From the NCBI GenBank assembly GCA_030280995.1, contig JASXTE010000017.1, positions 8,513,998-8,577,997 on the forward strand: a stretch of 64,000 bases of DNA, read 5' to 3'. Position numbers and translations under genes: made by a program. Shown piece after piece: positions 1,205 to 47,075 of this stretch. Each line of letters opens with the position of its first letter. The first letter of the stretch is position 1. Below the pieces are notes generated by a model. The model was not told the origin of the DNA. It worked only from the letters and a program-made list of their open reading frames with translations, and ran no database searches. The DNA comes from Hemileia vastatrix. Lineage: Eukaryota > Basidiomycota > Pucciniomycetes > Pucciniales > Zaghouaniaceae.

Positions 1205-2198
1205 ATGCCCTCATTTGTTGGGGTAGCAGGGGCTGATCACTCTAATTTTGTAATCTCTCCTCAGGATGAGATCCCGGATTGCAATAGGTCAGCTCACTTG
1301 GAGATAATTCAAGTGGATTCTCAATTATTTTCTGTTAATATTACTTTGGAGTGCAAATACGTTATGGACTTTTCTATATGTTTATTGGATTTACCCTGTT
1401 TTTCTATAAAATTTAAAAATGGTGAAAAAGGCAAAATGGGCCAAATTAGGTTGGATAAAGGTTGGAAGGGTATGTTTTATGGCCTCCAGCAAGAGGTTAA
1501 ACTGCAAGTATCTCCTTCTATTACGGACCTCCAGCAAGAGAGTAAACTGCGAAAAACTTATCAAAACCAAATTAAAAATCTCAGTATAAGTAAAACACAA
1601 AAAAATAACTTATGTGAAAATGTTATTCCCGACCTCCAGCAAGAGGTTAAACTGCAATTATCTCCTTCTATTTTGGACCTCCAGCAAGAGGGTAAACTGC
1701 GAAACTCTTATCAAAACCCGATTAAAAATCTCAGTATAAGTAAAACACAAAAAAATAATTTTTGTGAAAAGGTTATTCCGGACCTCCAGCAAGAGGTTAA
1801 ACTGCAATTATCTCCTTCTATTATGGACCTCCAGAAAGAGGGAAAACTGCAAAAATCTTAGTATAATTAAAACACAAAAAAATAATTTTTGTGAAAATTT
1901 TATTCCGGACCTCCAGCAAGAGGTTAAACTGCAAGTATCTCCTTCTATTATGGACCTCCAGCAAGAGGGTAAACTGCAAATATCACATCAAAATCCGATT
2001 AAAAACCTCAGTAAAATTAAAACACAAAAAAATAATTTTTGTGAAAATTCAATTCCGGTTCTCCAGCAAGAGTTTAAACTGCCAACTTTCTTTACGGGCG
2101 ATTTACTGTTGGATAAGGGAAGCAAAGGTGTTGGAAAATCTGATTATAAACTAGACGAGGGAAAAGAGAAAAGGGTAAAATTTAATAATGAAATATAA
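1205..2198 (+). pseudogene. Linker between protease and RT with 50-residue repeats (GyA-1)
   Basis: Reading frames here (1205-1861, then 1764-2198 in another frame) encode a hydrophilic linker built of repeats rich in DLQQEVKL and KNNFCEK. No enzyme domain is visible. The switch of frame coincides with a 23-nt shortening of one repeat unit, which suggests a frameshift in what was one ORF leading into RT. GyB-1 has only two short related segments at the same place (39,967-40,054), so the array expanded in the GyA lineage. Confidence 0.6.
1483..2081 (+). repeat. 150-bp in-frame tandem repeat carrying paired dyad motifs
   Basis: Units start at 1483, 1633, 1783, 1910 and 2060. Spacing is 150 bp (50 codons) except for one 127-bp unit. 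Each full unit has two copies of the dyad CCTC-CAGCAA-GAGG followed by TAAACTG, 45 bp apart (1483/1528, 1633/1678, 1783/1828, 1910/1955). The dyads are translated as LQQE(V/G)KL. Both arms of the small stem are kept in most copies; 1528-1549 and 2060-2081 keep only three pairs. Confidence 0.85.
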
Positions 2199-2942
2199 TA
2201 TTTTTCTAATTTTTCTTATTCCGATTCTGGCAATGAAGAAGATTCATTTGATGAAATATGTAATGGCGATACAAAAGTAAATGATTTACCTCAAGCTTAT
2301 TTAGATGTTGACGCAGCCAAATATAAGAAGGTAGCAAATAAATTTCGACCTATTAATGAACCGCTGCCTGCCGAATTAAATCCACCCTTGAGAAGACCAA
2401 GGTTATCAAGAGATCCTTATGAAAGTCCCTTGGTAAAGAATCCGCCTGAATTTTCTGAGACTTCAAGAATCACTTTTGAGAGACTGGGTGTTGTTAATTT
2501 TGGACCTGATGGTTGGTTGTCTGGAGAAGAGAAGAAGTTGTTGTTGGATGTGATGGTCAAGCGAGAGAAGGCCATTGCTTTTGTAGAAGAGGAGAGGGGT
2601 GTGTTGAAGCATTCCTATGGGGAACCTTACAAGATTCCTGTGGTATGTCATGAACCGTGGCAGCAGAAACCTATTCCTATTCCGGCTGCATTAAAAGAAG
2701 CCTATATTGAAGTTGTCAGAGAACGGATACGCACTAGACTGTATGAGCAATCAACTTCAAGTTATTCTAGTCCAGTATTTTGTATCAAGAAACCGAATGG
2801 AAAGCTTAGAATTGTTCATGATCTTAGGGAATTAAATAGGGTTACAATAAAGGATGCTGGGATACCGCCTAGTTCTGAGGAGTTTGTTGAAGCGTTTGCA
2901 GGGAGATTGTGTTATGGTTTGGGAGATATTATGGGTGGATAT

Positions 2943-3829
2943 CACCACCCAATATAGGGGGAGGACTTGCTAGCAAGTCCGCAACTTGAAGTCAGATGGA
3001 AATCAGATGGAACTCAGACTGAAGTAATACTGAACTTTCACTTGAAGTATCACACAAATAACAATGGATCTATATTGAAAACATAGTGAAAGTGTGAGGA
3101 TAACTGAATGGAAGCCAGAAAAAATCATTCCATGAGTCTACTCAATGCAAAGTATTTTTTGAAACAGCTTATTAAAATAATACTTTATTAAATTAATTTG
3201 ATCAATAAAAATTGATTGACAATATTGCAATTCTTAAATACAATAATTTTATTAAAAAATTTCAGATTACATATAAAAAAAATCAGTGACTTTTTCTATT
3301 ACTTACAACTGTTTTTACAGAATTGAAAACTATGTTTCAGCTAATATTTTATGGAAGTGAACTCTGTTCTTCGCCCGAAGAACAGAGTTCATCCTCCTAT
3401 TTTCACACTCTGTTTGCACCAATCTCCATCCCTTTCAATTCTATCAACACATGCTTGTCTTCCCTTCCCATGCCTTTCGCTATCCTCCCAGCCCCATTGT
3501 ATGCCATCCTCTTTTGATCCCCATTTCACCCCTCTCAACCTCTCCCAGACACTTTTCTTCATTTAAAATGCCTCAGAACCCTTAATCTTCCCTTCCAACT
3601 CTTTCCCAACCTTTTCGCTACCCCATACACCCTTCCTCACCCCTCTCTCCAGCCTTTCCAGCCCTTGTAGCCCCATTTGTGTTCACATGAGCTTCAAGGT
3701 GTGTTCAAAGTAAATTCAATACTTCTTCATGATGGTTTCAACACTTCCTCAATGTGTGCTCAAAAAGATATGAATTAGGGTTCAAGGTTGCGGACTTGCT
3801 AGCAAGTCCGCCCCCCATATTGCGTGGTG
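2943..3829. mobile_element. MITE with palindromic TIRs and 3-bp duplication, in RT
   Basis: An 887-bp non-coding element flanked by TAT (2940-2942 and 3830-3832). Its ends are inverted: CACCACCCAATATAGGGGG at the left and the complement of CACCACGCAATATGGGGGG at the right. Just inside each TIR is the perfect 18-bp palindrome GGACTTGCTAGCAAGTCC. The continuous RT frame across the empty site proves the borders. Three-bp duplications are typical of PIF/Harbinger-like elements, so that family is the likely source of transposase. Relatives lie at 27,431-27,680 and from 57,966. Confidence 0.88.
3358..3391. repeat. Perfect 16-bp hairpin inside the MITE
   Basis: TGAACTCTGTTCTTCG and its exact complement are separated by only two bases (CC). 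It is a second palindrome inside the MITE, apart from the TIRs. A degraded equivalent (near 58,845-58,885) is in the larger relative. Confidence 0.85.
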
Positions 3830-4453
3830 TATGATGAGAGAGAGTTACATCCGGACTCAAGGCCTCTCACTACATTCGATACACCACTTGGACGTTTACA
3901 GTTAACAAGATTACCTCAAGGAGCAACAAATTTGGTTGCAGTTTATCAAGCTCAGATGGCTTGGATCCTTCAAGACGAAATTCCACAATATGCTGGAATC
4001 TTTATAGATGATGGAGGAATTAAGGGAACAACAACCGACTATGATAACCAGGTGTTGGAAGAGAATCCCAGGATACGCAAATTCATTTGGGATTTTGCAA
4101 TTACATTAGAAAGAATCTTGTTTCGAATTGAAGAGGCTGGGTTAACTATTTCAGGCTCAAAATTTTCCTGTTGTGTGCCAGGCTTAGAAATATTAGGCCA
4201 TGTGGTATGTAGAGAGGGTAGGATTATGTCCAAGATGAAAGTTAACAAAATTCAGTCCTGGCCAAGACCCAAGAATACGACCAAAGTTAGAGGGTTTTTA
4301 GACGTTTGCGTATATGTTAGAATGTTTATCAAGGACTTTTCTTCATTGGCAGCTCCATTGAGACGGTTAACGAGAAAGGATGCAGACTGGGAGTGGGATG
4401 AAGAGTGTGAGAAGGTGTTTGTGAAGTTGAAGGAGGTTGTAGGGAAGGATTAA

Positions 4454-5521
4454 GTCCTGCACAAGTTGGATTATGGAAAAGATGCTGTTAGAATTTATTT
4501 AGCAGTTGATTCAAGTCAGGTTGCAGCTGGGGCGGTTTTGTCTCAGATGGATAAAGCTGGTTACATCAGGCCAGTTAGGTATGAATCTGTAGTATTTACT
4601 GAGGTCGAATCAAGATATTCTCAACCAAAATTGGAATTATGTGGTGTAGTGAAAATACTGAAGAAACTTCAGCATATTTTGTGGGGGCAACATTTTGAGT
4701 TGCAAGTGGATGCAAAATCGTTAATCCAGATGATTAATTCCCCAATTTTACCAAATGCACCCATGACGAGATGGGTAGCTTTTATTCAACATTTTTCTTT
4801 TGATTTAGTTCATAAGCCTGGCAAGACTTTTACTATGCCAGATGGTTTATCAAGGAGACCACCCACTGAAGAAGATTCAGACTCAGAAGAGTTCGATGAA
4901 GATATACCTATTATCAAAGCCAGCACTAAAGGAGCTAAAGGATTTCCATACCTCCCCCATGAGGTTAAACTGGCAGGACTATTGTGTTTAGATTATGATG
5001 ATGATGACCTCCACCAAGAGGATAAACTGGAAAATAGTTTTTATGTTAATAAAGGTGTTGGAAAAAGTGTAGATAACTTTGGCAGAGAGGAGGTAGAAGA
5101 TGATGTAGTGTATGTAGAGGAAGATGGATTGGTAGTGTGGGATAGTAGTAAATTAAGGAATGGTGTATATGTTGGAGAATTAGAGAATTTAAATAAAAGG
5201 GTGGATAAAGAGAAAGAGGTATTTTCGAATACGGTTTACGAAGGATCCAAAGGTTCAGAAGAAAAACGTCGGCATAGCTCGATTAAAGATTTATTTAGGG
5301 GTCAACGATTATTGGCTCATTCATGTGCAGGTGATATTGGTGATAGAGAAGTCCCTATTGATGTTATATTAATCGATTTTAAAGATGAAGTCTGGGGTCA
5401 GACTGGTTTTTATTTTTTGTTAGTCAAATATTTGTTGACTTTAGAGAGGCCAGAAGGTTGTGAAGACGATGAATGGGTGGCTATCAAAAGGAAGTCATCT
5501 ACATTTTACCTATCTGGTTGA
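4454..5521 (+). pseudogene. Gypsy RNase H and post-RNase H linker (GyA-1)
   Basis: The frame is the same as RT, after the TAA at 4451-4453, and ends at a TGA at 5519-5521. The start matches the Gypsy RNase H fold (IYLAVDSSQVAAGAVLSQ, then SRYSQPKLELCGV with the catalytic Glu, and LQVDAKSL with an Asp). Residues from about 130 form an acidic linker holding two dyad motifs (LPHEVKL, LHQEDKL). In GyB-1 the TGA position is a CGA Arg codon, so it probably arose by a C-to-T change in this copy. Confidence 0.8.
4951..5029 (+). repeat. Two dyad motifs in the RNase H-integrase linker
   Basis: CCTC-CCCCAT-GAGG-TTAAACTGG (4951) and CCTC-CACCAA-GAGG-ATAAACTGG (5008). Both keep four complementary arm pairs and the TAAACTGG tail while staying in frame. 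GyB-1 has three at the homologous site (41,981-42,075). Confidence 0.85.
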
Positions 5522-6688
5522 CGTTTAATGAGGAGAAGGTATCCAAATCCTCAAGTAGTTATAACTCAACAGAAGGGGCAAGAATTAGTTTTGAAATCAC
5601 CGCATAAAGATCTTGGGCATAGAGGCGTTGGAGAAACGTTTAGAAGAATTTCTGATCGATTTTGGTGGCCTGGCATGAAGATGGCTGTTAAACAGTGGGT
5701 TCAGTCATGCGAAGAATGTCAAAGACAAAGTTATTTAAGGCCAAAAGAACCTGGACGCGCAACTGGTGAATATACGCTCTTTGGAAGAGTTAGTTTAGAT
5801 GCCGTTCATATAAAAGAGGGACGGTATAAATATTTAATTGTGGCCAGAGATGATTTATCTGGTTGGGTAGAGGCAGCGCCTCTTATTAATTTAACTGCCA
5901 AAAATGTGGCAGAATTTTTTTTGAATAATTGGGTATATAGGTATGGGGTGATGAAGTTGGTAACGGTAGATGGAGGTCCTGAATTTGGGACAGAGTTTAA
6001 AGAGGCCGTATTGAAAGTTGGATCAAAGGTTAGGGTAGCAACCACATATTATCCTGAAGCTGAAGGCATGGTTGAAAGAGGGCATCAAGTTATTAAGGAT
6101 GCTTTAGTTAAAATGTGCGGGACAAGTGCCAAAAAGTGGAGGCACTATTTACCTTTAGTTTTATTTGCTGATCAAATCACTGCCAAAAGGACGACCGGAT
6201 TTTCACCTTATGAACTTGTTTTTGGACAGAAAGCAGTTTTACCGGTTGATTTTGAAGCTGAATCATATCTTGGAGTTGACTGGGAAACGGTCAAAACTAC
6301 TGAAGAATTATTGTGTGCAAGAATGATGCAGCTAGAAAAGAAAGAAGAATATTTAGAAAAGGCATATTCGTGGATGATGAAGATCAGAAATCAATCAGTT
6401 AGATATTGGGATGAGCGGTTGGCACATCGATTAAGGAAACCTTTGAATCCAGGAGATATGGTCCTGGTGTATAATAGAAGTCTAGAGAGTCAATGGGGAA
6501 AGATGTTTGCAGATAGGTGGAATGGACCATATAAAATCAAGGAGCAAGTTTCCGGTGGTTCATATGTGTTAGAAGAGTTGGATGGAGTAGTATTTAAGAA
6601 GAGGGTAGTGGCCGATCAAGTGAAACGGTTCTATCCTAGAGGCACCAGGAGTGCTGAAGTCTTCCTCCGCAATGAGGATAAACTATGA
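5522..6688 (+). CDS. Gypsy integrase (GyA-1)
   Basis: An intact 386-codon stretch in frame with RNase H. It has an N-terminal HHCC zinc module (HKDLGHRGVG ... SCEECQRQS) and a DDE core: D in SLDAVHI, D in TVDGGPEFG and E in EAEGMVERGH. A basic C-terminal domain follows (YNRSLESQWGKMFADRWNGPY). It would insert the cDNA into chromosomes. The last residues LRNEDKL are encoded by a dyad motif that runs into the stop codon. No chromodomain is evident. Length and order are normal for Ty3/Gypsy. Confidence 0.88.
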   Translation, partial: RLMRRRYPNPQVVITQQKGQELVLKSPHKDLGHRGVGETFRRISDRFWWPGMKMAVKQWVQSCEECQRQSYLRPKEPGRATGEYTLFGRVSLDAVHIKEGRYKYLIVARDDLSGWVEAAPLINLTAKNVAEFFLNNWVYRYGVMKLVTVDGGPEFGTEFKEAVLKVGSKVRVATTYYPEAEGMVERGHQVIKDALVKMCGTSAKKWRHYLPLVLFADQITAKRTTGFSPYELVFGQKAVLPVDFEAESYLGVDWETVKTTEELLCARMMQLEKKEEYLEKAYSWMMKIRNQSVRYWDERLAHRLRKPLNPGDMVLVYNRSLESQWGKMFADRWNGPYKIKEQVSGGSYVLEELDGVVFKKRVVADQVKRFYPRGTRSAEVFLRNEDKL

Positions 6689-6778
6689 TATCGACGAAAT
6701 TTTATGGATTCCTCCGCAATGAGGATAAACTATGATGTTTATAAAAATCTTATCGACCTCCGCAACGAGGATAAACTA
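6664..6778 (+). repeat. Three dyad motifs around the integrase stop codon
   Basis: Copies at 6664, 6711 and 6757, each CCTC-CGCAA(T/C)-GAGG-ATAAACTAT. The first encodes the last integrase residues and includes the TGA; the other two are downstream and non-coding, so arm pairing there is not a by-product of codon constraint. GyB-1 has one copy at the same place (43,610). Confidence 0.85.
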
Positions 6779-7839
6779 TCTTCTTTTTTATCAAATAATT
6801 TACTATCGTTACACTGCATATGGGCAACGAAACTGAGATGAAGCTTTACGAAATTCAAGAAGACCTTCTTTGAAATTTTTGAAAACTTAAAATTCTTAAA
6901 ATATGGGTGAAGATAGTGTTTGAAAATTTTTAAATTTATTGGAAGAAGTGTTCACAGGGGAACCTTCTTAATTTAATATTGGCAAGTGTGGGGGTAATTG
7001 ATGGGCTGGCTGCTCTATACACAATTACCCCATAATGTTCGTTTCCAAAATTTTCCCTGTTTCTAGTTGAATCCTGGCTTTGTCTTTTAATTATAGGAAG
7101 TCCACTAAGACTATAAACTGGAACAAATCAAGAGACACCGCTCTCAACGCCGGATTCAAGATTCTTTTTATTTTATTTTGTTTTTGATTTTTTATGTAGA
7201 TTGTGATTTCTTTTCTTTAATTTATATTATGAATTATTGTAAAGGTGATGCTCACTGGTGGTCTCTAATCATTTTTATAAATTGGAGGGAGCCCACCCAG
7301 TGATCATCATTATAAAAATTATCTTTTAAAAACTTTCATTTATTTTCTTTTCTTTGCAATTTCTTAAAATTGTGTAACCACATCAAGTTGCACTTGGATG
7401 TGGGTATGATGTCGAGGGTACGGCTCATCAAATGGCCGGGGGGCATCTTTTAAAATTTTTATTTTAAAAATTTTTATAACTTTTTTTTAAACTTTCTTTT
7501 CACATTTGTTTATCTTTCTTTAAAAATTAAATTTTAACTTTTATTTCAAAACTATCTTTTTTAAAAAAATCTTTTATTTTAAAAATAATAAAAAAAAATA
7601 AATAAATAATAAAATAACTAAAAATAAAAAAAAATAAATAAAAAAAAATATATATATATAATATAAAAAAAAAAAAAAGAAAAAAAAATATAAAATAAAA
7701 TAAAATAAAATAAAATAAAAAAAATAAAATAAATAAACAAATAAAAAAAAAGAAGGTATTTTAGTTTTAGGTAGTTTAGATGTTTATATTTTATTTTTCA
7801 AACATTATTCAAGAAAGCTACATACCAGGAAGAACACCA
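6689..7839 (+). other. Structured 3' non-coding region of GyA-1
   Basis: No gene. It contains a large hairpin at 6,991-7,031, a dyad motif at 7,099-7,121 (AGTC-CACTAA-GACT-ATAAACTGG), an imperfect GATCACTG-type hairpin at 7,250-7,305, a CCACATC hairpin at 7,378-7,403 and an A-rich AAAAT-type tract at about 7,560-7,750. The same modules occur in the same order in GyB-1 (43,610-44,790) and in GyB-2 (minus strand). Confidence 0.75.
6991..7031 (+). other. Conserved hairpin GGGGTAATTG / CAATTACCCC
   Basis: A perfect 10-bp stem with a loop that starts ATGGGCTGGCTGCTC. GyB copies have GGGTAACTG / CAGTTACCC, a compensatory pair change. Nested inside is a GAGC/GCTC type mini-stem in the GyB versions. 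Confidence 0.85.
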
Positions 7840-8854
7840 TCAAGGGTTGTTATCTTTTGAAGAATCGAAATTAGAAAATTTAGAAGGACCTTGATTGATT
7901 TCCTGGGATTCAAATCTTATTTCACGGTCACGATAGTGTTGAAGCCAGTTGGCTATTTTGAAAAGGTCTCTTAACAGTTGCTCTCTCATCCAAGATTCTG
8001 ATCTATCAGAGGGCGGGTATTGTTGGAAATAAGAGATAAGGTTATTAAAATTTGCAAAAAGCTTTTCAGACACTAGGTGAATTGGAACTCTAGGGAATCT
8101 TGGATTAGGTTCTGGTAGTTCATAAGCTGAATATGAAATTGGAGAACCGGTGGATGCTTATCAAATTAAAAATATCAGCAAATTAAAACCTGAAGATTAA
8201 GAAAATAAAAAGAGACAACTAACCTGTGTCAACACTATCATGATCATAGATAAATGGCTTACTTGGTAATGGAGTGGGATTTTTTATGTTTAGAAAAGGA
8301 TTTTTTATTTTTGATAGATGAGGAGGACTGGTGTTGGATTTGGTGTTTAAAGTAGATGTTCTGGGCCTTTTGGATGAAACAAGAGAAGATGAAGATTGCT
8401 GGCTATTATAGGACCTTTTGTGCTTCAAGATGTTGGAAGTAGGAGAAGAATTGTTAGAAGGTTGAAGCATGGCCCTGGGAGAAGCAAGAGTTCTTGGGGG
8501 AGAAGCAGCAATTCTAGATTGGAGAGAAGGACCCAGAGGATTAGGTGATGGAGAAATATTTAAATAGGCTGATGGAGAAAAAGGGATGGGATCTTTAGAG
8601 TTTGATGGAATAGGGGGTGGAGTAGAAGGTGAAGAAGTAGGAGGAGGATTGCAGAAGGCGGCGAAGCTAGTAGCAGTAATGGGGAAAGAACCACAGTTCA
8701 AGCCAGAACATTTTCTTTTCTTCTCATAGCAGGATAAACAGGCCCTGTTATAAGTGTGCTTTTGCCAGTTGAAAGTGAAGATACATTCCCTATGGGTGAA
8801 AGCACAATATTTGCAAGATTGATCAGCTGAAGCAATGAAGTCAGAAGGTTTCAT
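7840..8854 (-). CDS. Antisense gene Y: cysteine-cluster protein (GyA-1)
   Basis: A minus-strand gene lying between integrase and 3' LTR. Exon 1 is 8854-8224; a 67-bp intron (8223-8157, GT...AG) joins in phase to exon 2 (8156-7840). I chose the Met at 8854 because it precedes the conserved cluster; an upstream Met at 8983 is also in frame. Near the start is C-X2-C-X6-C-X14-C-X2-C-X6-C (SCKYC ... ACLSCYEKKRKC), close to fungal Zn2Cys6. A long Ser/Pro-rich middle follows. The C-terminus is an amphipathic segment (WMREQLLRDLFKIANWL) that aligns with the C-terminal exon of GyB gene Y. Function unknown; DNA or RNA binding is the natural guess. Stop-free in both exons. Confidence 0.65.
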
Positions 8855-8949
8855 CTTGTTAGGAGATATTTTTTTTGAAGAAGAAAACTTGAAACTAGGA
8901 TGAAGAAAGCTGGTGGCAAAATCTGGGTTCAAGGATAGAGAAGTTGTTA

Positions 8950-9421
8950 GGTCCACCAAGACCTTAAACTGGACTGTTATCAAGCTGTTGGGTCCACCAT
9001 GACCTTAAACTGGATTTCTTATCGATTAAATGTTTGGTCCACCATGACTTTAAACTGGTAGTTCATTCATTGTTTAGTCCACTATGACTTTAAACTGGAA
9101 AATTAATATCTGCAGGATAATTCAACATTCATTGGTCCACTATGGCCTTATACTGGATTACTTGTTGATCAAATGTTTGGTCCACTATGACATTAAACTG
9201 GATTATCAAATTTATTCAATCTTTGGTCAAGCCTAGGCCTTACTTAGGAATTTATCAAGTTATTTATGCACCTAAACGATCTTTGGTCCACCAAGACCAT
9301 AAATTGAAAATCGATTATATGTTTGGTCTACCAAGACTATAAATTGGAATGTCAATCTTGTTTGGATAACTCAATTCAATCTTTTAATTTATCACTGTCC
9401 ACTAAGACTCTAAACTGGTTA
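8950..9421 (+). repeat. Array of nine dyad motifs upstream of antisense gene Y
   Basis: Copies start at 8950, 8991, 9036, 9076, 9134, 9179, 9285, 9325 and 9396. Most are GGTC-CAC(C/T)A(T/A)-GACC or GACT followed by TTAAACTGG; the 9076 copy is AGTC/GACT and the 9134 copy has a G-U-compatible GGTC/GGCC. Spacing is often 40-45 bp. The array lies between gene Y (start 8854) and the end of gene X (10,006), the same place as the arrays in GyB-1 and GyB-2. Confidence 0.88.
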
Positions 9422-26989: not shown

Positions 26990-27386
26990 CAGTTTACAGT
27001 CTTGGGTGACTCATACATAGTTTTAAGTCTTGGGGTACTAACAGCCCTCATTTTATAGTCTTGGGGGACTCAAAACCTAAATCATAAATACAGAACCAGA
27101 GATCAAACCATTAAAGACTAAAGAAATAAACTAAAATTCTGGGGCAACTGTTCTACAGAGTCGCCAGCTCATCAGTTACCCCCACACTTGCCTTAAATAA
27201 ATTCAGAGACTCCCCCTTTTGATGCCCTCTTCCAGAATCACACCAACATCACATTATCAGTTTTAAGTCCTGAAGGACTCAACCGTCAAAATATCCTCAG
27301 TTTATAATCTTGGGGGACTATACCATTTTTCAGTTTAAATTCTTGATGGACTGGCCACAGTGTTCAGTTTAAAGTCTTGATAGACT
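26990..27386 (-). repeat. Dyad arrays between antisense genes X and Y (GyB-2)
   Basis: On the element sense strand (minus): three copies at 26,990-27,071 (AGTC-ACCCAA-GACT and similar) and four at 27,259, 27,298, 27,331 and 27,365, spaced 33-39 bp. Between them is the GGGGTAACTG hairpin (27,141-27,182). Same order as in GyB-1. Confidence 0.85.
27141..27182 (-). other. GGGGTAACTG hairpin, copy 1 in GyB-2
   Basis: On the sense (minus) strand the arms are GGGGTAACTG and CAGTTGCCCC, that is one G-U pair. The loop has GAGC ... CTC. Confidence 0.75.
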
Positions 27387-29403: not shown

Positions 29404-29895
29404 TTATAAAAAAATTTATTTTATTTTATTTTATTTTTATTTTTATTTTTATTTTTATTTTTATTTTTATTTTTATTTTTATTTTTATTTTTATTTTTAT
29501 TTTTATTTTTATTTTTATTTTTATTTTTATTTTTATTTTTATTTTTATTTTTATTTTTATTTTTATTTTTATTTTTATTTTTATTTTTATTTTTATTTTT
29601 ATTTTTATTTTTATTTTTATTTTTATTTTTATTTTTATTTTTATTTTTATTTTTATTTTTATTTTTATTTTTATTTTTATTTTTATTTTTATTTTTGTTT
29701 TATTTTTATTTTTATTTTTATTTTTATTTTTATTTTTATTTTTATTTTTATTTTTATTTTTATTTTTATTTTTATTTTTATTTTTATTTTTATTTTTATT
29801 TTTATTTTTTTTTTATTTTTATTTTTATTTTTATTTTTATTTTTTTTTATTTTTTTTTATTTTTTTTTATTTTTTTATTTTTTTATTTTTACCAA
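29404..29895. repeat. ATTTTT hexanucleotide tract
   Basis: Nearly pure (ATTTTT)n for about 480 bp, with a few TTTT expansions near 29,800-29,880. It follows the stop of gene Y. GyA-1 (7,560-7,750) and GyB-1 (about 44,735-44,770) have A-rich tracts of related type at the same place, on the element sense strand. Confidence 0.95.
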
Positions 29896-31050
29896 TTATT
29901 ACTTAAACTACTAACATACTAAAAAAAAACTTGAAAATAATTAAACAAAATTGCCCAACATACTATGAGAGCTGAGAAATTTAAATGAAATGAATAATAA
30001 TAAGATGAAATAAATAATAATTTCAAATGGTATCCCTCAGCAAATTGATGAGCTGATCCCCTGATACCTTACCCACATTTAAGTGCACCTTGATGGGGAT
30101 AGACCATTAAATAATTTTTAAATGAATTGAGATAAAAATAAATTAAGGAAAATAATATCAATAAAGATAAGATGAAATGAATAGAAATTAAAGTAAATAA
30201 TAAAAAAATGATATTAGGATTAAAAAGAAAATAGCATTTCCCAGCCAATTGATAAGTCTTTCCCCACCAATATTTGCCCACATCCAGGTGACCCTTATGT
30301 GGTGGCACCATATAATATAATATTGTAATTTTCCCCCTCTTTACATCTTAATACCCCCATAAAAATTAAAAGAAAAAAAGAGAAAAAAGAAAATAATCTA
30401 AAACTTCTCTCTAACACAACGATAGACACAAAAATCAAATAAAGAAATAGAAAAATTCTGGATCCATAGAAAGTCCAGACCAAGGAAATGATCACTGAGT
30501 GGGCTCCCTCCAATAAGTAAGAATGATGGGAGACCATCAGTGATCCACCACCAACCCAAATGAACCAAAGAAAAAGAAGCCAGTCCCAAGCCAGTTTAAA
30601 GTCATAGTGGACTTGAAACCTGAATAACAAAAAACAGAACTAGGATTTAACTAGGACAAACTAAATACTTGAAACAGACATCATGGGGTAACTGTTCTAC
30701 AGAGCAGCCAGCTCATCAGTTACCTCCTCACTTGCCACAATAAAATCTAGAAGCCACCCCCCCCCTGGGTACCTTCAAACATAAACTCAACATTCAACAC
30801 AATCTACCAAAACCAATAAGACTTGAAGACCAAAATAGTTTCCAGTTTTAAGTCATAGAGGACTTAAAACCTGTGAAAAGAAACCAATACTAGGGTTCAA
30901 CAAAATTAAGAGAAAGGGTTTCAAACAGACAATCTTGGGTAGCTGTTCTACAGAGCAGCCAGCTCATCAGTTACCCCTACACTTTCCAAGATCAAATCTA
31001 GAAGCCCTACCCCTGTGTACCCTCTAAAAAATAAGTTTCCAATAAAACGG
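29896..31050 (-). other. 3' non-coding region of GyB-2
   Basis: No gene. On the minus strand it carries CCACATC-type hairpins (30,071-30,099 and 30,276-30,302), a GATCACTG hairpin (30,490-30,545), dyad motifs (30,591-30,613 and 30,842-30,864) and GGGGTAACTG hairpins (30,685-30,727 and 30,936-30,977). Confidence 0.75.
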
Positions 31051-32201
31051 TGTGGTAGCCTAAATTTTAGTATGGCACCTAAGTACGTAAATGGAGTTAT
31101 TACGGCGTGAAAGATTGGGGTTATTTTTTTTATAAAAGGGTTTTATTTAATTTATTTGAGTTTTAAATATGAAGAAATTGGTTTAAAGCAAATACCTACG
31201 TGAAAACAAATTAATTTACAAAGAAAAATTATTTTTACGGTCTGAAAGGTTTATAAGTATCAAGTCGAGTCACTCAAGAACCTTGGGAAATTTTTCCAGA
31301 ATTTTTACTATTTTTCTTATATTTTTAAATGAATTTTAAAGATTTATAGAAATATTTACGTTTTTAGAAAATACTTAACTTTGATGAATTTTCATGGGGC
31401 AATTAGAGCTGCGCAGGCTACGAAAATTAGTTGGAAATTTAAAAGGGAAGTGGCTCTATCATGTGTAATTTTTCTAGATTTCTTATTATAGTTTTAAAGG
31501 TTCTAATTGAGTCTGGAGGTCCGGACAGACTCCGCTTGGACTCCAGACGGACTTCGTACGGACTCCGTACAAGCTCCATACGGGCTCAGTACGGGCTCCG
31601 GATTGACTCTGGGTGAGCTCTGGAGGGGAAATTTAGGCATGTGACTAGGTATACTTAAGAGCCTCTCAGACTCGAAATTGGGCATCATCTTACAATTATC
31701 AGACAACATACAGCTTAATCTTTAACCACCACGGTCTCATTTTTTATTACTCAACAAATTAAATAAAATTATAATACCCTTATAACTTTATATTTTATAT
31801 ATAAAATTTTAGAAATAATACTCAAAAATTTAAATCACACTTCATACAGGGTATCTTTAGAAAGGTCTTCATCACTGGGACTTGATTATTGCTGTCTCAT
31901 AAAAATTCAAATTATTATAAAAACATAAAAGTCAATCTTTTCAGATCTTTCACTGGTACACCTTAATTCTTGTAATCAGTATTTCTTTCTCAACAGCCAA
32001 TTTTATTTAAATCTCAATAAGCGTTAAATATTTCAGAGTTTCAACATTTTTACCAATCAGATCCAAGTAGACTGGTTAGCTTAGTAATTTAGAATTCCCA
32101 TTTTGTTATTTTTATTGGAAGGACAGGGTTTTCAGCTAAATCCACATATCTCCTCCGGATTCTGCTTACAGCAAGGCGACTGTAAGAGTTTACCTTACCA
32201 T
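31051..32201 (+). mobile_element. Solo LTR of family GyA in GyB-2
   Basis: About 1,150 bp matching 10,822-11,913 from TGTGGTAGCC to CCTTACCAT. Flanked on both sides by AACGG (31,046-31,050 and 32,202-32,206). The joined flanks read, inverted, like GyB-1 at about 43,650-43,690, which confirms the insertion site. Confidence 0.88.
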
Positions 32202-33513: not shown

Positions 33514-33950
33514 AGTAAAATAAAACCCAGTCTGACCCAGGTCTCATCTTCAAAATACAACAAAAGAAAATCCAAGGGTACAACCCTGTCATCAAAATTG
33601 CCGGTGTACACACGAGCCATTTGACCAGCTCAACCAGGATACCAATACCTAAATTTTGGTACATCCTTTTCCTTCCACTGAATCTTAAGAGAATCCAGTT
33701 CACTAACAAAAACACCATTTTCTAATTTTGAGCCATCCTAAAAAACAGCCCCATTTTCATCAACAAAGACATCCTGATCACCAGAATCAAGATCAGATCC
33801 AGCCAGTTTAACCTCTTGTGGGAGGAGGGAGCAATATTTCATTTTAGCCCCATGGGGGAAGAGAGAAAAATCTTCCAGTTTAGCCTCATGGGGGAGGAGA
33901 AAAAACCTTCCAGTTTAGCCTCATGGGGGAGGAGAAAAAACCTAGCTGAT
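33506..33950 (-). pseudogene. Remnant of the RNase H-integrase linker (GyB-2)
   Basis: Corresponds to 41,990-42,400 of GyB-1. It has dyad copies at 33,803, 33,876 and 33,911 (minus), plus a degenerate one near 33,843. RT and RNase H, expected to the right, are absent. Confidence 0.65.
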
Positions 33951-34220
33951 CTTCACAAAAAAAATTCTTATCTTATTTCTTCATTATGTTCATATTTTTT
34001 TATTTATTTATTATCATTTTTTTTGATTATCTTGAGTTATCTTGAAATTTTTCTTTTCTTTTCCTGAGTTTTCTTCTGACCTACAAAAATAACCACACCA
34101 AAGGTTGTGAAAAATGGATCCTGAAGAGCCACCCACACAAAGAAAAAGACCAATTAAATAGTTTATCCTCATTTCGAAGGAATTATATTCTTGAAATCCC
34201 CAGGTTGAAACAAATAATTT

Positions 34221-36015: not shown

Positions 36016-37089
36016 TGTGGTCTTGCAATATTGGTGGGGCCCTTTGTTGGTTTATTTGGTGTTGTTTTGGTATGCCTTAAATTTCATTGTTTAAATAAAA
36101 TAGGAATTTTTTAGAAATTACGCAGCAAATGTTGGGACTTCAGGGATCTGGATATTACCATTGGATAGCCCTGATTTTTCTCTATATTTTATGTTGTGAG
36201 GACATTTTTCATAGCTTAAGTATTTGGATAATAATTTCTCACTTTTCATTTTAAAAGATTGCTGTTAAATTTTGTTTTTCATTTTTTACGGGCTAACCTT
36301 AAGTCTTAGGGTTAAGTGCTTAGTTCCGTTGGAAAGAGCGGAACTTTCTCTACATTTCATGTCACAATGTTGTTATAGCATAATTATGTGTTTTAAGGGT
36401 TTTAGTAGTTGTAGGTGAATTTTCTAAGTAGTTTGGTTGTTTTTGGTGGTTTTCTGGCTTCAGGGTGGTCAGGCCACTTCAGGAAGGCTTCCCGGTGTTG
36501 GGTGGACTGCCTGCCTCAGTACTAGAGGGCTGTGAAGCGCCTCTAGGGAGTTTTTATGCAATTTGGTGGTCAGGAACGCCAGATTTTCAGGTGTGTATGG
36601 GCTCTTAATTAGTAGTCTGTGTGTATATAGTGAATAAGATAGTTTGGGGCAACTCTAATTATCATTCAACCATCCAGAGGTGATATCCTTGTTTCTCACT
36701 CAGTTTTCACTGTTTTCTGGCCACATTTTGTCTGTGTTTGTTGCAAGTGAGTTCTTCATTTAACTTAACTTAGCAACTGGTTTCCTCTGTTATAGTCATA
36801 CAAGCTATAGCAAGTATTATTGCTGTCCCTGGTGTGGATTTGCAACCTACATCAAGTATCATTGCTTTCTCTGGTGTGGAATCTGGTCTACATTTCAGTT
36901 CTTTGGTTTGGTAGTCTCTCTGGAGACTACTTTCTTGACTGATAAAGCAGTCAAGTGAATTTGGAAAAGGGGATTTTGGTAAATAGGAACCAATTTACTG
37001 TAGCAGGTAAATCTCACTTGTTTTTCTTTCTGGTTTTACTACAACTCCCTTGGTAAAGGCCTATAGCTAGCACTATAGGATTGTCTACA
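36016..37089 (+). mobile_element. 5' LTR of GyB-1
   Basis: Starts TGTGGTC, ends GTCTACA. A TATA-like TATATAG lies near 36,624. Matches 47,842-48,930 with scattered differences, so insertion is not recent. Confidence 0.9.
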
Positions 37090-39257: not shown

Positions 39258-39704
39258 GCAAGAATTGGTTACCAATTTGACATGGGGATTAGTTTGGTGT
39301 TAACTGGTGAAGATGATAGGAGGCTTCACAAGAGGTTGTCATCTCCTGAAGATGATGGTTAAGAAACCAGGCCTGGTTTGTCGTTCATGTGTCAATGCAT
39401 GGATTGTTGCAGGAGGAGAAAAGAAGTGGGTGCCGCTTCTGGATTTTTGGAGTGTGGCTCAGGCTCTAGTGAAAGTCTGCCTTTTTTAGAATGATGAAGG
39501 CTGATCACCCAAGTGCTAAAACCTCTCCCCAAGAATAGGAAATCCCAGGTTTTAGTAGGTCAGCTCTTCTCTTCTCCGCAACTATTCTTCATTTTTTTTA
39601 ACATATCTTTGTTCTTTTTCAAGATTTTCTATTAATTTTAATTCAAGTTCAAAAGGGAAGTAAGGTTATATATCTTTATTGAAAGATATGTGGAAAATCA
39701 TTGG

Positions 39705-40277
39705 AGTGGTGAGATTGGGATATAAAAGAAAGTCCTCCCAATTGTGCACTACTAGTGTTTCTTCTACCCCTTTCAAAAACATTACCTTTGCCACGTCTGT
39801 GAGCATTGGGGAGACCCCTGGATATTTTTGTAGGCAAGAAGAAAACACAAGAAAAGAGAATAAAAATTTCAAGATAATTCAAGAAAATAAAGAAAAAAAA
39901 TCTGAAGATAATGAAGAAAGAAAATGCAAAATATTTTTGTGAAAATCAGAAAGATCTAGTTTTGGGCCTCCAGCAAGAGGTTAAGCTGCACAAATTTTTG
40001 AAGAATGAAGATCAGAAAGATCTAGTTTTGGGCCTCCCGCATGAGGATAAACTGCACAGTTTTAGAAGATTGGATTCAGAAAATGAATCAAGATTTGAAG
40101 ATTTGGTAGATGGAAGTGAAGATGAAGATGTGAATTGCAGAAAAGCTTTGCAGTGGTGAGATTGGGGAGTAAAAGTAATTCATCCCAATTGTGCACTGCT
40201 AGGGTTTTTCTACACCTTTCAAAAAAATTTACCTTGCCCACACATGTGAGCAATGGGGAAACCCTTGGTTTTTGTTC
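39705..40277 (+). repeat. Pair of 120-bp direct repeats with dyads between
   Basis: 39,705-39,831 and 40,152-40,277 match over most of their length (GTGGTGAGATTGGG ... CCAATTGTGCACT ... ACCTTTCAAAAA). Between them are two dyad motifs (39,967 CCTC-CAGCAA-GAGG; 40,033 CCTC-CCGCAT-GAGG). GyA-1 does not have this unit at the same place. Confidence 0.65.
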
Positions 40278-41478
40278 CAGGTCTGGTGGAGAAGACGTCC
40301 TGAAGATCCCTCAAGTTGACGGTAGAGCCGCAAAGTACAAGAAGGTGGTTCAGAAGATTAGGCCTCTCAATGAGCCTATGCCTGTAGGTTTGAATCCTCA
40401 GTTGAAGAGACCTCCGTTGTCAAGAGATCCATACTGTACTCCTCTGGTGAAGAGTCCTCCTGATTTTGAGGAAACTGCTAGAGTGACAATGGAAAGGTTA
40501 AAGGTTGTTTATTTTTGTCCTGATGGTTGGTTATCTGAGGAGGAAAAGAAGTTGTTGTTTCACATTATTGTGCTAAGGGAGATGGCAGTGGCATTTGTTG
40601 AAGAGGAAAGGGGTGTGTTGAAACACTCTTATGTGGAACCTTACTTGATTCCTGTGGTTTTTCATGAACCTTGGAAAATCAAACCTATTTTAATTCCTGT
40701 TTCTATCCAGGATGATTTTGTGGAGATTGTTAGGGAAAGAGTCAGGACTGGATTTTATGAACAATCAACTTCTAGTTACTCAAGTCCAGTTTTCTGTGTT
40801 AAAAAGCAGAATGGAGAGTTCAGAGTGGTACATGATCTTATAGCCCTGAATAGAGTTACTATCAAGTATTTTGGGATGCTGCCAAGTGCAGAAGACTTCA
40901 CAACATTTGAGACTCCTCTGGGGAGATTTCAGCTCACTAGGTTGCCTCAAGGAGCAACTAATCCAGTAGCAGTTTATCAAGTAAAAATGGCTTGGATTTT
41001 ACAGGATGAGGTGTCTATTCATGCTGGTATTTTTATTGATGATGGTGGAAATAAAGGACCCTCCACTGATTATGGAAGTGAAGTACTGAAAGAAAACCCA
41101 GGTATAAGGAAGTTTGTTTGGGAATATGCAATTACTAAAGAGAGAGTATTGTTTAGAATTGAAGAGGCTGGCTTGACCATTTCCGGGTCAAAGTTTTGTT
41201 GTTGTGTTCCGGCTCTGGAAATTCTTGGGCATGTGGTATGTAAAGAAGGGAGAATTATGGCAAAGAAGAAGTTTAATAAAATTCAGTCACGGCCAACGCC
41301 TAAAAATACTACTGAAGTCAAAGGATTTTTGGGAGTTTGTGTGTATGTCACAATTTTCATTAAAGATTATTTTTTGTTGGCTTCACCTTTAAGGAGTTTA
41401 ACCAGGAAAGATGCAGAGTGTGAATTGACTGAAGAGTGTAAAGAGGCTTTTCAGAAGTTGAAGAAGGTGTTAGATTAA
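40135..41478 (+). pseudogene. Gypsy reverse transcriptase lacking motif A (GyB-1)
   Basis: A 447-codon open frame with the usual fingers (SSYSSPVFCVKKQNGEFR), LPQGATNPVAVYQ and GIFIDDGG. Compared with GyA-1, 31 codons are missing in frame between AEDF and TTFETP. The missing part includes LGDIMGGY, the first catalytic Asp. The RT cannot be active although the frame is intact. It ends at a TAA at 41,476-41,478, as does GyA-1. Confidence 0.85.
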
Positions 41479-42470
41479 GATATTATTCTTCACAAGTTAG
41501 ATTATGGTAGAGAGGCTAAAAAAATCTATCTGGCGGCGGACTCAAGTTATATTGCTGCTGGTGCTGTTTTGTCACAGGAAGATAAATCTGGGATAGTCAG
41601 GCCAGTAACGTATGAGTCTGTGGTTTTTAATGAGGTGGAATCTAGGTACTCTCAGCCAAATATGGAATTGTGCAGAATAGCAAAAATCTTAAAAAAGCTA
41701 CAAACTGTTTTGTGGGGCAGCATTTTGAGCAGCAGGTGGATGCTAAATCTCTGGTTCAAATGATCAACACACCTAGTCTTCTAAATGCTCCAATGACTAG
41801 GTGGGCGGCATTTATTCAACATTTTTCTTTTGACCTGGTGCACAAGCCAGGTAAAACTTTTACAATGCCAGATGGATTGTCAAGAAGACTGCCTACAGAT
41901 GAAGATTCTGATCCTGAAGAGTTTGACAAAGATGTCCCAGTTGTTAGAGACAGCACAAAGGGTGCTGAAGATTTTTCTCTCCTCCCCCATGAGGCTAAAC
42001 TGGATGGTTGTTGTCACCTCCCCCATGAGGCTAAACTGGATGATTGTTCTCTCCTCCGCCAAGAGGATATACTGGATGGTTCTGATCTTGATTCTGGTGA
42101 TCAGGATGTTTTTGTTGATGAAGATGAAGCTGTTTTTTGGGATGGCTCAAATATGGAAAACTGTGTTTTTGATATTAAACTGGATTCTCATAAGATTCAG
42201 TGGAAGGGAAGGGATTTACCAAAGTTTAGGGATTGGTGTCCTGGATGGGCTGGTTGTGTTGCTCATGTGTACACTGGCAATTTTGATGATAGGGTTGTAC
42301 CCTTGGATGTTGTTTTGTTGGATTTTGAAGATGAGGCCTGGGGCAAGACTGGGTTTTATTTTTTTTTTGTTAAATATTTGTTGACCTTGAAGAGGCCCAA
42401 TATTTGTGATGATAATACTTGCCTGGAAATCAAGAAGAAAAGTGCTGGATTCTATGTGTCAGGAAGAAGG
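41479..42470 (+). pseudogene. RNase H and linker (GyB-1)
   Basis: From IYLAADSSYIAAGAVLSQ through SRYSQPNMELC and, after a frameshift near 41,710, QVDAKSLVQMI. The linker has three dyads (41,981, 42,017, 42,053; LPHEAKL repeats). Confidence 0.75.
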
Positions 42471-43609
42471 TTGATGAGGAGAAGACATCTAAATCCTCAA
42501 GTTGTTGTGACTCAGAAGAAGGGTCAAGTGTTGGTGTTAAAGTCTTTGAATGAAGACCTTGGTCATAGAGGCTTTGGGGAGACTTATAGAAGAGTAGAAG
42601 ACAGATTTTGGTGGCCAGGTATGAAGTTGTCTGTGCAGTGTTGGGTTCAGTCTTGTGAAGAATGTCTAAGAAGAAGTCAATTGAAACCTAAAGAGGTTGG
42701 CCATGCTACTGGTGAATCAACTGTGTTTGGAAGAGTCAGTTTGGATGCTGTCCATATTAAAGAGGGCAGGTATAAATACTTTATTGTTTCCAGGGATGAT
42801 TTGTCTGGCTGGGTAGAGGCAGAGCCTCTGGTTAATTTGACTGCCATGAATTTGGCAGAGTTTTTGAAGAAAGAATGGGTATTTAGATATGGGTTGATGA
42901 AGTTGGTGACTGTTGACGGAGTGCCAGAGTTTGGAGCAGAATTCAAAGAAGCTGTGGCAAGTATTGGTTCTAAAGTCAGGGTGGCTACATCTTATTATCA
43001 TTAAGCTTAAGGCATGGTTGAAAGAGGCCATCAGGTTATCAAGAATGCTTGGTAAAGATGTGCAGAGATAGTGATGATAAGTGGAGGTATTGTTTACCAT
43101 AGGTGTTATTTGTTGATAGGGTCACTGTGAAAAGGAAAACTGGATATTCCCCTTATGAATCAATTTTTGGTCAGAAAGCTGTTCTACCAGCGGATTTGGA
43201 AGCTGTCTCTTATCTTGTAATGGATTGGAATGATGTGTGCTCAACAAAAGATTTGATCTGTGCCAGGATACAGCAGTTGGAATGTAGAGAGGAATGTCAA
43301 GAGAAGGCATACTCTAGAATGATTAAGATAAGAAATCAATCAGTCAGATACTGGGACAAGAAGTTGGCTTATAGACTCAGGAATCCCTTGAAACCTGGTT
43401 GCTTGGTTTTGGTGTATAATATAAGTTTGGAGAGTCAGTGGGGAAAAATGTTTGCTGAAAGTTGGAATGGACCTTACAGAGTCAGATCTCAGGTGTATGG
43501 AGGTTCTTATGTTTTGGAAGAGTTGTATGGTGCAGTCTTAAAGAAGAGGGTGGCTTCTGATCAGGTGAAGAGATTTTACCCTAGAGGCACAAGAAGTGAA
43601 AAAGATTGA
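42471..43609 (+). pseudogene. Gypsy integrase (GyB-1)
   Basis: Zinc module (NEDLGHRGFG ... SCEECLRRS), Asp in SLDAVHI and TVDGVPEFG. A TAA and frame changes at about 43,003-43,100 break the region with the Glu (GMVERGH). The C-terminal half (43,103-43,609) is open and ends FYPRGTRSEKD. Confidence 0.8.
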
Positions 43610-43747
43610 CTCCGCAATGAGGATAAACTATGGACCATTCTTTATAGTTGGATTTTTTTGTGGTGATGCTGTGCATCTGTTTTGTTGGAAACTTTTGTTA
43701 GAAGGTTTTAATGGGTGGAGCTTCTATATTTTATTTTGGCAAGTGTG

Positions 43748-43788
43748 AGGGTAACTGATGGGCTGGATGCTCTATCAACAGTTACCCC
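43748..43788 (+). other. GGGTAACTG hairpin, copy 1 in GyB-1
   Basis: GGGTAACTG pairs with CAGTTACCC; loop ATGGGCTGGATGCTCTATCAA. Confidence 0.8.
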
Positions 43789-44005
43789 AGATTGTCTGTT
43801 TCCAACCCCTTCACTTAATATTTTTTAATTCTAGTATTTGCTTTTCTTCACAGGTTTTAGTCCTCTATGACTTTAAACTGGAAAATTATTTTGGTCTTCA
43901 AGTGCCGGACTCTTCAATCTTATTGGTTTTGATTTTGTGTTGGATGTTGTGTTTTTGTTAGAAGGTACCCAGGGGGGGCTTATTGATTTTATTTTGGCAA
44001 GTGTG

Positions 44006-44047
44006 GGAGTAACTGATGAGCTGGCTGCTCTGTAGAACAGTTACCCC
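44006..44047 (+). other. GGGTAACTG hairpin, copy 2 in GyB-1
   Basis: GGAGTAACTG and CAGTTACCCC; loop with nested GAGC/GCTC stem. Confidence 0.8.
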
Positions 44048-44842
44048 ATAATGTCTGTTTCAAGTATTTTGTTTGTCATAGTTGAATCCTAGCTCTGGTT
44101 TTTGTTATTCAGTTTTAGTCCACTAAAACATTAAACTGGATTTTGACTGGCTTCTTTGTTTCCTTGGAGTGGTGGCAGATCACTGGTTGTCTCCCATAAT
44201 TTTAACTTATCGGAGAGAGCCTACCCAGTGATCATTTCATTGGATTGGATTTCTTTTTCTTTTTCTTTTGTTCTGATTTTTGTGTTATAAGTTGTGTTAG
44301 ATAGTAGTTTTAGATTATTTTCTTTTTTCTCTTTTTTCTTTTAATTTTTTATGGGGATTGTTAGGATGTAAAAAGGAAAAAATTAAAAAATTATGGTGTT
44401 ACCACTTTAGGGCCAACTGGATGTGGGAAAGAATTGGTGGGGAAAGGCTCATCAATCGGCCAGGCAACGCTATTTTCTTTTTTCTTTTTTATTTATTTCT
44501 GTGTTTCTCTTTTTATTACTTTCTTTAATTTCTAATTTTTTTTATCATAAATCATTTAAAATATTTAATTGTGTATCCACATCAAGGTGCACTTGGATGT
44601 GGGTAAGGTATCAGGGGATCAGCTGATCAATTGGGTGGGGGATACTATTTGTAATTATAATTTAGTTCATATTAGTTTATTCATTTCATTTTAATTTAAT
44701 TTTCAAATTCTTTTATGTTCGTAGTTTATTAGTTGAAAAATAAAAATAATAATAAAAATAAAAATAAAACATTTAGATATATATATATCTGTTAGCTGTT
44801 TTTATTTTTTTCTCTATTTAGTAATTTTTAACATTCTTTTAT

Positions 44843-46405: not shown

Positions 46406-46550
46406 AACCTGTGAAGGAGTAATAGTGGAAAGAAAAGAGATGAATAAACAGATTTATCAGTGATGTGTAGATGGTGAAGAAAGGTGGAAGTTTAGAAAGT
46501 TGGCTGCGGAGCGTTGTGCATGGAGGCGGTGCTGCCTTTGCTAAGCATCA

Positions 46551-46780
46551 GTCCGTCAAGACTTTAAACTGAAAATTGGGAAAAGTCTGTCAAGAATTTA
46601 AACTGAAAATTTCAAGTAGTCTGTCAAGACTTTAAACTGAAATTTGGAAGGTAGTCTGTCAAGACTTTAAACTGGAAACTGGGAAGTCTGTCAAGACTTT
46701 AAACTGAACACTGGTACAGTCCCTTAAGACTATAAACTGAGGAGGGTTTAATGGTTGAGTCCTTCAGCACTATAAACTGA
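46551..46780 (+). repeat. Dyad array, seven copies, 33-bp period (GyB-1)
   Basis: Copies begin at about 46,551, 46,584, 46,618, 46,653, 46,685, 46,718 and 46,758. Most read AGTC-TGTCAA-GACT-TTAAACTGA. One (46,718) has the spacer CCTTAA. The period is 32-35 bp, then 40. It lies about 146 bp upstream of gene Y. Confidence 0.9.
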
Positions 46781-46850
46781 TATGAGGATGGTGTAATTCT
46801 GGCAGAGGTCATCCAAGGGGGAGTCTCTGAATTTTGTTAGGGAAAGTGTG

Positions 46851-46891
46851 GGGGAACTGATGAGCTGGCTGCTCTGTAGAACAGTTACCCC
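46851..46891 (+). other. GGGG-AACTG hairpin, copy 3 in GyB-1
   Basis: GGGGGAACTG and CAGTTACCCC with one imperfect pair; nested GAGC/GCTC. Between the two dyad arrays. Confidence 0.75.
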
Positions 46892-46962
46892 AGAATGTTA
46901 GTTTGTTTCTTTGGGTCTTAAATGTTTTGATCTTTGGTTCTGTCTTTTTTATTTAGGTTTTT

Positions 46963-47075
46963 AGTCCCCCAAGACTATAAACTGAGGCTTCTGTGTCCCC
47001 CAAAACTATAAAATGAGGGCTGTTAGTTCCACAAGACTTAAAACTGAGGATTAGTCCCCCAAGACTTTAAACTGA
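46963..47075 (+). repeat. Second dyad array, four copies (GyB-1)
   Basis: Starts 46,963, 46,994, 47,025 and 47,053 (AGTC-CCCCAA-GACT-(A/T)TAAACTGA and decayed forms), period 28-31 bp. Just beyond the end of gene X. Confidence 0.85.

What the first reader, a model, noticed from the sequence alone, without database searches (positions are those of the whole stretch)
1483..47075. A small dyad motif with co-varying arms, over 50 copies across Gypsy families
Seen directly: arm(4)-N6-complementary arm(4)-WTAAACTG(G/A). Arms are CCTC/GAGG in coding parts, GGTC/GACC in the GyA-1 array, AGTC/GACT in GyB arrays, with wobble-compatible cases (GGTC/GGCC, GGTC/GACT, CCTT/GAGG). The spacer keeps length 6 and usually reads CNNYAW. 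Both arms change together while the tail is constant, which is the mark of selection on pairing (RNA hairpin) or on a two-fold binding site. All copies have the same direction relative to the element sense strand. I know of no described motif like this in Gypsy elements.
Basis: seen in the sequence. Interest (0 to 1): 0.92.

Follow-up and report, generated by a model that had tools for sequence, protein, structure and literature searches.

The report
Repeated 22-base motif in rust retrotransposons
One family group of jumping genes in a rust fungus carries many copies of the same short, partly mirror-symmetric DNA word, over 100,000 in the genome, which looks like a docking site for an unknown protein rather than a proven RNA hairpin.

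Summary
Its form is NNTCCNNYAWGANN-N-TAAACTG. The window holds 54 copies with up to 2 core mismatches (none in the reversed control). The 748-Mb genome holds 106,683 exact copies against 10 for the reversed pattern. It is a rust fungus genome, possibly Hemileia vastatrix (inferred). In the DNA sampled, copies go with one Ty3/Gypsy clade, outside the GyB LTRs and on one strand per element. They lie in frame in pol linkers and in the 3' noncoding region.

Arms come in three complementary classes, but covariation rests mainly on one split, CC type upstream against RG type downstream. In the CC class 1 of 89 first-arm changes is compensated, some site types stay mismatched, and folding does not beat shuffles. 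For RNA speak an A/G-with-T/C association in the RG class (p = 0.0025) and recurrent G·U but no recurrent A·C form seen.

Best reading: arrays of recognition sites for a sequence-specific protein, like gypsy/ZAM arrays or VANC targets. DNA or RNA level is undecided.

The parts
1483..2081 (+). GyA: nine CC-class copies (CCTC/GAGG and near variants) between protease and RT
   Evidence: the six inside ORF 1205-1861 share one codon phase
4951..5029 (+). GyA: two CC-class copies in the RNaseH-integrase linker
   Evidence: linker longer than in the relatives aligned
6664..6778 (+). GyA: three CC-class copies with tail TAAACTA; the first codes the last residues of the integrase frame, two follow its stop
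   Evidence: the third has more than 2 core mismatches
7099..7120 (+). GyA: first RG-class copy (AGTC/GACT), noncoding
8950..9417 (+). GyA 3' noncoding array: nine RG-class copies (GGTC/GACC, GGTC/GACT, AGTC/GACT, GGTC/GGCC, GGTC/GACA, TGTC/GACT)
26990..27386 (-). Inverted GyB-like element: six RG-class copies near its 3' end
30592..30864 (-). Inverted GyB-like element: two RG-class copies
33804..33932 (-). Inverted GyB-like element: four CC-class copies (one with CTTC/GGGG) before the integrase
34159..34180 (-). Minus-strand copy with CCTT/GAGG (U·G) and tail TAAACTA
36016..37089 (+). GyB 5' LTR (no motif copy inside)
   Evidence: self-BLAST, 91% to 47842-48930; site list
39967..40054 (+). 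GyB: two CC-class copies between protease and RT
41981..42074 (+). GyB: three CC-class copies, 36-bp spacing, in the RNaseH-integrase linker
43609..43630 (+). GyB: ACTC/GAGG copy that starts on the last base of the stop ending frame 43103-43609
43859..44138 (+). GyB: two RG-class copies, noncoding
46550..46779 (+). GyB 3' array: seven RG-class copies at 32-40-bp spacing
46963..47074 (+). GyB 3' array: four RG-class copies (one, 46994, with TGTC first arm)
47842..48930 (+). GyB 3' LTR (no motif copy inside)
   Evidence: site list
3824..6688 (+). GyA pol: RT, RNase H, integrase reading frames
   Evidence: Pfam RVT_1, RT_RNaseH, Integrase_H2C2, rve (RVT_1 and rve below their gathering scores)
40882..43585 (+). 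GyB pol: RT, RNase H, integrase
   Evidence: tblastn with GyA pieces, 68-79% identical

Best explanation
The motif is a recognition site for a sequence-specific protein, carried in several arrays by each element of one rust Ty3/Gypsy clade and kept by selection in the lineages that go on transposing. The protein, from host or element and unknown, would read the two-fold TC-N6-GA core, whose half-sites lie ten bases (about one helical turn) apart, plus the one-sided TAAACTG tail. Clustered binding would mark the element's internal DNA and change its chromatin or expression (anti-silencing or insulation), as the tandem sites of gypsy, ZAM and VANDAL elements do. Shown: the motif, its number, its company with this clade in the DNA sampled, one direction per element, position in pol linkers and 3' noncoding DNA, and excess conservation in one element pair. 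Inferred: the protein, binding at the DNA rather than the RNA level, and the benefit.
For: 106,683 copies against 10 in the control. Motif substitutions 19 of 198 against 745 of 3670 outside, 10 of 14 GyB sites wholly or partly aligned. Specific bases, not just pairing: of 90 TAAACTG tails in 264 kb taken without any rule on the arms, 58 have TC-N6-GA at the fixed distance, and all 44 with four Watson-Crick pairs fall into just three arm classes (20, 18, 6). The peptide is not the reason: 31 of 54 window copies are RG class and noncoding, and L..[ED].KL occurs in 2 of 120 integrase homologues, one of them 97% identical to the query (most homologues cover only part of the linkers). The RNaseH-integrase linker that holds copies is much longer than in 8 relatives aligned, which are unnamed, and in one named rust, Austropuccinia P0046. 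Random 10-kb loci: exact motif in 3 of 20; the 7 loci with distant Gypsy pol (22-28% identical) show no exact copy with that pol. Tandem short sites inside LTR elements or other transposons that proteins bind are known: gypsy/ZAM (PMC8872304, passages) and VANC targets (PMC5735166, passages).
Against: No binding protein is known and no binding was tested. The known arrays sit in noncoding DNA; here 23 of 54 window copies are CC class, mostly in coding linkers. One direction per element is not needed for a DNA site, although spread by template switching during reverse transcription would also keep it (inference). In the RG class, A1 goes with T14 and G1 with C14 or T14, never A1 with C14 in the sample (row Fisher p = 0.0025), and genome-wide G·U intermediates are 20 times commoner than A·C ones, as RNA pairing predicts. 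Helical phasing at 10.5 bp is absent with the 26 distinct spacings (p = 0.93) but nominal with all 61, which repeat the same sites (p = 0.009).
Confidence: 0.4

Rival explanations
1. RNA-level signal: a 4-bp hairpin with a six-base loop and a single-stranded UAAACUG tail, repeated through the element's transcript, bound by Gag/nucleocapsid or a host RNA-binding protein for packaging, export or stability.
For: One direction per element, none in the GyB LTRs. All three major arm classes complementary. RG-class association of A1/G1 with T14/C14, Fisher p = 0.0025 by rows and 3e-9 by sites. GGTC/GACT (G·U) 5287 copies, 93 of 100 printed with two recurrent loops, against AGTC/GACC (A·C) 257 scattered copies. 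G·U cells outnumber A·C cells 16 to 4 in 138 sites. One compensated copy CTTC/GAAG.
Against: Seven stretches fold no better than shuffles, z -0.46 to +2.07. Recurrent site types with T·T or G·A at pair 1. 1 of 89 compensated in the CC class. Without the two recurrent loops, 7 of 100 printed GGTC/GACT places remain, so private G·U and A·C changes look similar in number (my extrapolation). By my count of row types 9 G·U against 4 A·C, p = 0.27. No Rfam family at gathering score.
Confidence: 0.32
2. Passive micro-repeat: the unit spreads within the element by slippage or template switching during reverse transcription and is tolerated in linkers and noncoding DNA without function.
For: Tandem units of 28-150 bp; copy number differs between elements; long pol linkers are tolerated; one direction per element follows from the mechanism (inference).
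Against: Unit length and flanks change while the 22 bases stay; motif more conserved than flanks in the one pair tested; same tail and core in the CC and RG classes.
Confidence: 0.15
3. Protein-level repeat: the peptide L-x-[QHN]-E-x-K-L is what is selected.
For: All 12 copies wholly inside the ORFs that I checked share one codon phase.
Against: 31 of 54 window copies are RG class, in DNA without a sense pol frame; distinct RG spacings show no multiple-of-three bias (p = 0.61; with all spacings, which repeat the same sites, there is one); some read TAA in that phase, such as loop CACTAA; peptide in 2 of 120 homologues.
Confidence: 0.03

Closest known systems
gypsy and ZAM 5'-UTR tandem arrays of Drosophila LTR retrotransposons (insulators; TERM motif bound by RpL22)
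   Same: LTR elements carrying tandem short sites read by host proteins (PMC8872304, passages read)
   Different: Those arrays are in the 5'-UTR; here they are in pol linkers and the 3' noncoding region, with a partly two-fold 22-base site and over 100,000 copies. Binding is untested here.
VANC target motifs of Arabidopsis VANDAL transposons
   Same: Short motif in tandem repeats inside one transposon group, motif type differing between subfamilies (PMC5735166, PMC10398659, passages read)
   Different: VANDALs are DNA transposons (recalled) with a known element-coded binding protein and motifs in noncoding regions; here LTR elements, coding copies, no such protein found.
Dispersed RNA packaging stem-loops of single-stranded RNA viruses (recalled)
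   Same: Many short similar hairpin-like signals through a transcript, compatible with coding
   Different: No folding excess and little compensation here.

Membership tests
Ty3/Gypsy LTR retrotransposon (the carrier) | protease, RT, RNase H, integrase in this order between LTRs | tested here: met
   (LTR pair shown for GyB; GyA is cut by the window start)
Covarying RNA structure | many independent compensatory exchanges | tested here: not met
   Signal mainly from one class split; within-class shuffle p 0.07-1.0; 1 of 89 compensated. Against this: RG-class Fisher p = 0.0025
Covarying RNA structure | folding stability above shuffled sequence | tested here: not met
   seven stretches; z-scores between -0.46 and +2.07
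gypsy/ZAM-type protein-site array | tandem short motif in the internal region of an LTR element | tested here: met
gypsy/ZAM-type protein-site array | located in the 5'-UTR | tested here: not met
   No copy between the GyB 5' LTR and position 39967; only GyB could be checked
gypsy/ZAM-type protein-site array | host protein binds the motif | not testable with these tools
   no binding data
VANC-type anti-silencing | element-coded motif-binding protein | tested here: inconclusive
   20 of 24 listed ORFs scanned: no clear DNA-binding domain outside pol; weak SNF2_assoc and Rox3 matches on the repeat-rich ORF 1205-1861, taken as spurious; no CCHC/C2H2 pattern in GyA or GyB sense frames; GyA is cut by the window start
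VANC-type anti-silencing | loss of silent chromatin marks at motif copies | not testable with these tools
   no methylation data

The most novel reading that the evidence does not exclude
The clade evolved a dispersed RNA (or RNA-and-DNA) address, many copies of one hairpin-plus-tail built in frame into its own pol linkers and its 3' region, that lets a dedicated protein recognise its transcripts or copies against all others, and this helped it fill a 748-Mb rust genome.
Probability: 0.22. Interest if true: 0.85.

Novelty: new variant of a known kind. Interest (0 to 1): 0.62.

Why it matters
Rust genomes are among the largest of fungi, largely because of transposons with Gypsy elements prominent (PMC12210899, abstract start and passages), and why certain lineages win is open. 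A 22-base word present in over 100,000 copies, even inside coding linkers, is a concrete handle on how one lineage may be recognised by a host or element protein. It predicts a binding protein that could be sought, and whether motif-bearing copies differ in silencing from motif-free relatives can be tested with existing kinds of data.

Tried and rejected
Protein-level selection as sole cause: rejected. A codon-invariance count (in 51 copies with CTC..GAG arms, AAA in 49, CTG or CTA in 51) is not used as evidence, because the sites were chosen with at most two core mismatches. Pairing of the tail with CAGTTTA in cis: one homologous place per element (3939 and 40970, in RT), about what chance gives. 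Helical phasing: absent with distinct spacings, nominal with all. Rfam: 0 matches. Other collections: one exact hit in viral contigs, in what looks like a levivirus by its gene order (my reading), and four single hits in bacterial contigs; taken as chance. Homologues of ORF 1205-1861: none at E 0.001. Two equal-length antisense ORFs are unrelated. Literature searches that showed no description of the motif (listings).

Rows dropped or capped: the two chance-like sites (first arms TTGC, ATTA) were removed and 138 sites reduced to 55 cluster-by-arm rows. One search used the 100 places printed of 1883; 89 had G at position 13 (CC class); 100 printed of 5287; 100 of 257; 100 of 3871, not counted by type. 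One search listed 120 of 151. One search printed matches of 250 bp or more. The CC-class counterpart CCTC/GAGA did not complete.
Full report
What is there. The motif reads NNTC-CNNYAW-GANN-N-TAAACTG. In the window 43 exact TAAACTG tails were scored for the preceding dyad; 38 of 43 have at least three Watson-Crick arm pairs. Allowing two core mismatches gives 54 sites in the window and none in the reversed sequence of 264 kb. In the whole genome (747.6 Mb, 791 contigs) the exact pattern occurs 106,683 times and the reversed pattern 10 times. Taking tails alone in the window plus 20 random loci, 58 of 90 have TC-N6-GA at the fixed distance, and the 44 with four Watson-Crick pairs are AGTC/GACT (20), CCTC/GAGG (18) and GGTC/GACC (6).

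Where it is. Among the 120 listed relatives (of 151) of integrase frame 5528-6688, the named ones are mostly rust fungi (Austropuccinia, Puccinia, Cronartium, Phakopsora); exceptions are Smittium, a Streptomyces label, and a 97% match under a Xanthomonas label that I take for contamination. Genome size and 32.9% G+C of the 264 kb fit Hemileia vastatrix (733.5-796.8 Mb, 33.6% G+C; PMC6472787, passages), but the species is inferred. In the window the copies sit in three elements of one Gypsy clade: GyA (cut by the window start), GyB with LTRs 36016-37089 and 47842-48930, 91% identical, and an inverted GyB-like element. None lies in the GyB LTRs. In 20 random 10-kb loci of one contig, exact motifs occur in 3: two beside pol of this clade (64-97% identical) and one, L038, at a locus edge where no pol of the clade is seen. 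Seven loci hold distant Gypsy pol (22-28% identical): L039-L041 and L044-L046 have no exact copy (L039 has one chance-like two-mismatch site), and in L047 the distant piece lies about 3 kb beyond the clade element's last copy. L038 also holds an integrase 54% and 46% identical to GyA without copies near it. In a tree of 181 integrase columns it falls with GyA, GyB and the inverted element (split support 0.965), its place among them unresolved (0.303); its long branch and split match suggest decay.

Anatomy. In each of the 6 site groups that hold both classes, CC-class copies come first and RG-class copies after them in the sense direction; all 16 groups are single-stranded. CC copies lie between protease and RT, in the RNaseH-integrase linker, and at or just past the integrase end. 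The RNaseH-integrase linker is much longer than in 8 unnamed relatives and in the named Austropuccinia protein P0046. All 12 copies wholly inside the ORFs checked share one codon phase; a 13th starts on the last base of a stop. RG copies are noncoding, 28-111 bp apart. The peptide is rare in relatives (2 of 120), with the limit that most relatives cover the integrase only.

Conservation. Between GyB and the inverted element, motif columns differ in 19 of 198 and other columns in 745 of 3670 aligned bases, p = 1e-4 (gaps left out, one element pair). Between GyA and the GyB-like elements, the printed BLAST matches of 250 bp or more include one stretch of 3' noncoding DNA (7368-7751, 71%, partly simple repeat) and none over the GyA array 8950-9417, yet arrays exist in both.

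Covariation. Over 55 cluster-by-arm rows the two outer pairs exceed shuffles (95 of 110 paired, 55 expected, 0 of 5000 shuffles as high). Most of this comes from the CC/RG split, shared by the elements and so probably one old event. Within RG, pair 1 gives p = 0.07 by shuffles; A/G against T/C alone gives Fisher p = 0.0025 by rows (A-T 25, A-C 0, G-T 2, G-C 3) and 3e-9 by sites. Within CC, pair 1 p = 1.0, pair 2 p = 0.095. Of 100 printed DCTC places, 89 are CC class: 69 TCTC/GAGG (U·G), 19 mismatched, 1 Watson-Crick. TGTC/GACT recurs as a T·T form. Between AGTC/GACT and GGTC/GACC, the G·U intermediate has 5287 copies and the A·C one 257. Of printed G·U places 93 of 100 have two recurrent loops and 7 have others, so the excess is mostly two site types. 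This favours RNA pairing but rests on few events.

RNA stability. Seven arrays or pairs of copies fold with z from -0.46 to +2.07. Rfam finds nothing at gathering score.

Reading. A site with fixed bases, part two-fold and part one-sided, in arrays, kept in a clade of transposons, is what a recognition site for a specific protein looks like. Known parallels are the tandem 5'-UTR arrays of gypsy and ZAM (PMC8872304, passages) and the VANC targets of VANDAL elements, where motif types differ between subfamilies and tandem repeat formation spreads them (PMC5735166, PMC10398659, passages). A 2025 study of rust transposon bursts has 0 occurrences of 'motif' and 'tandem' in its main text (PMC12210899, term search). 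I hold the DNA reading at 0.40, RNA at 0.32, passive repeat at 0.15. Unexplained: why upstream, mostly coding copies are CC class and downstream noncoding copies RG class.

Limits. Many genome searches did not complete. No other rust DNA could be searched, so whether other rusts carry the noncoding arrays is unknown.

Noticed in passing
L048:2186-9990: The word AAGTGTCC occurs at ten places, several about 605-615 bp apart; at eight it begins a long, near-perfect palindrome (AAAAGTGTCCAGCACAAGTT..AACTTGTGCTGGACACTTTT).
   Followed up: partly
31520-31600: Tandem repeat of TCCGTACGGAC (holding the palindrome CCGTACGG), about seven copies, inside a plus-strand repeat lying within the inverted element.
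   Followed up: no
29415-29891: 477-bp (TTTATT)n array inside the inverted element; an A-rich array lies in GyA at 7581-7751.
   Followed up: no
P0001 (97% identical to part of window 5528-6688): A record labelled Xanthomonas sp. A2111 holds a nearly identical integrase including the motif peptide, probably rust DNA in a bacterial assembly.
   Followed up: partly
L031:4011-4032: One exact match to the CC-class motif just after the last gene of what looks like a levivirus contig; taken as chance.
   Followed up: partly
8219-8983: 254-aa antisense ORF in the GyA 3' region without Pfam match; a second antisense ORF of the same length at 20260-21024 is unrelated.
   Followed up: yes
L035:8184-8340: Tandem repeat with 22-bp spacing around GTCACTTC in a random locus.
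   Followed up: no
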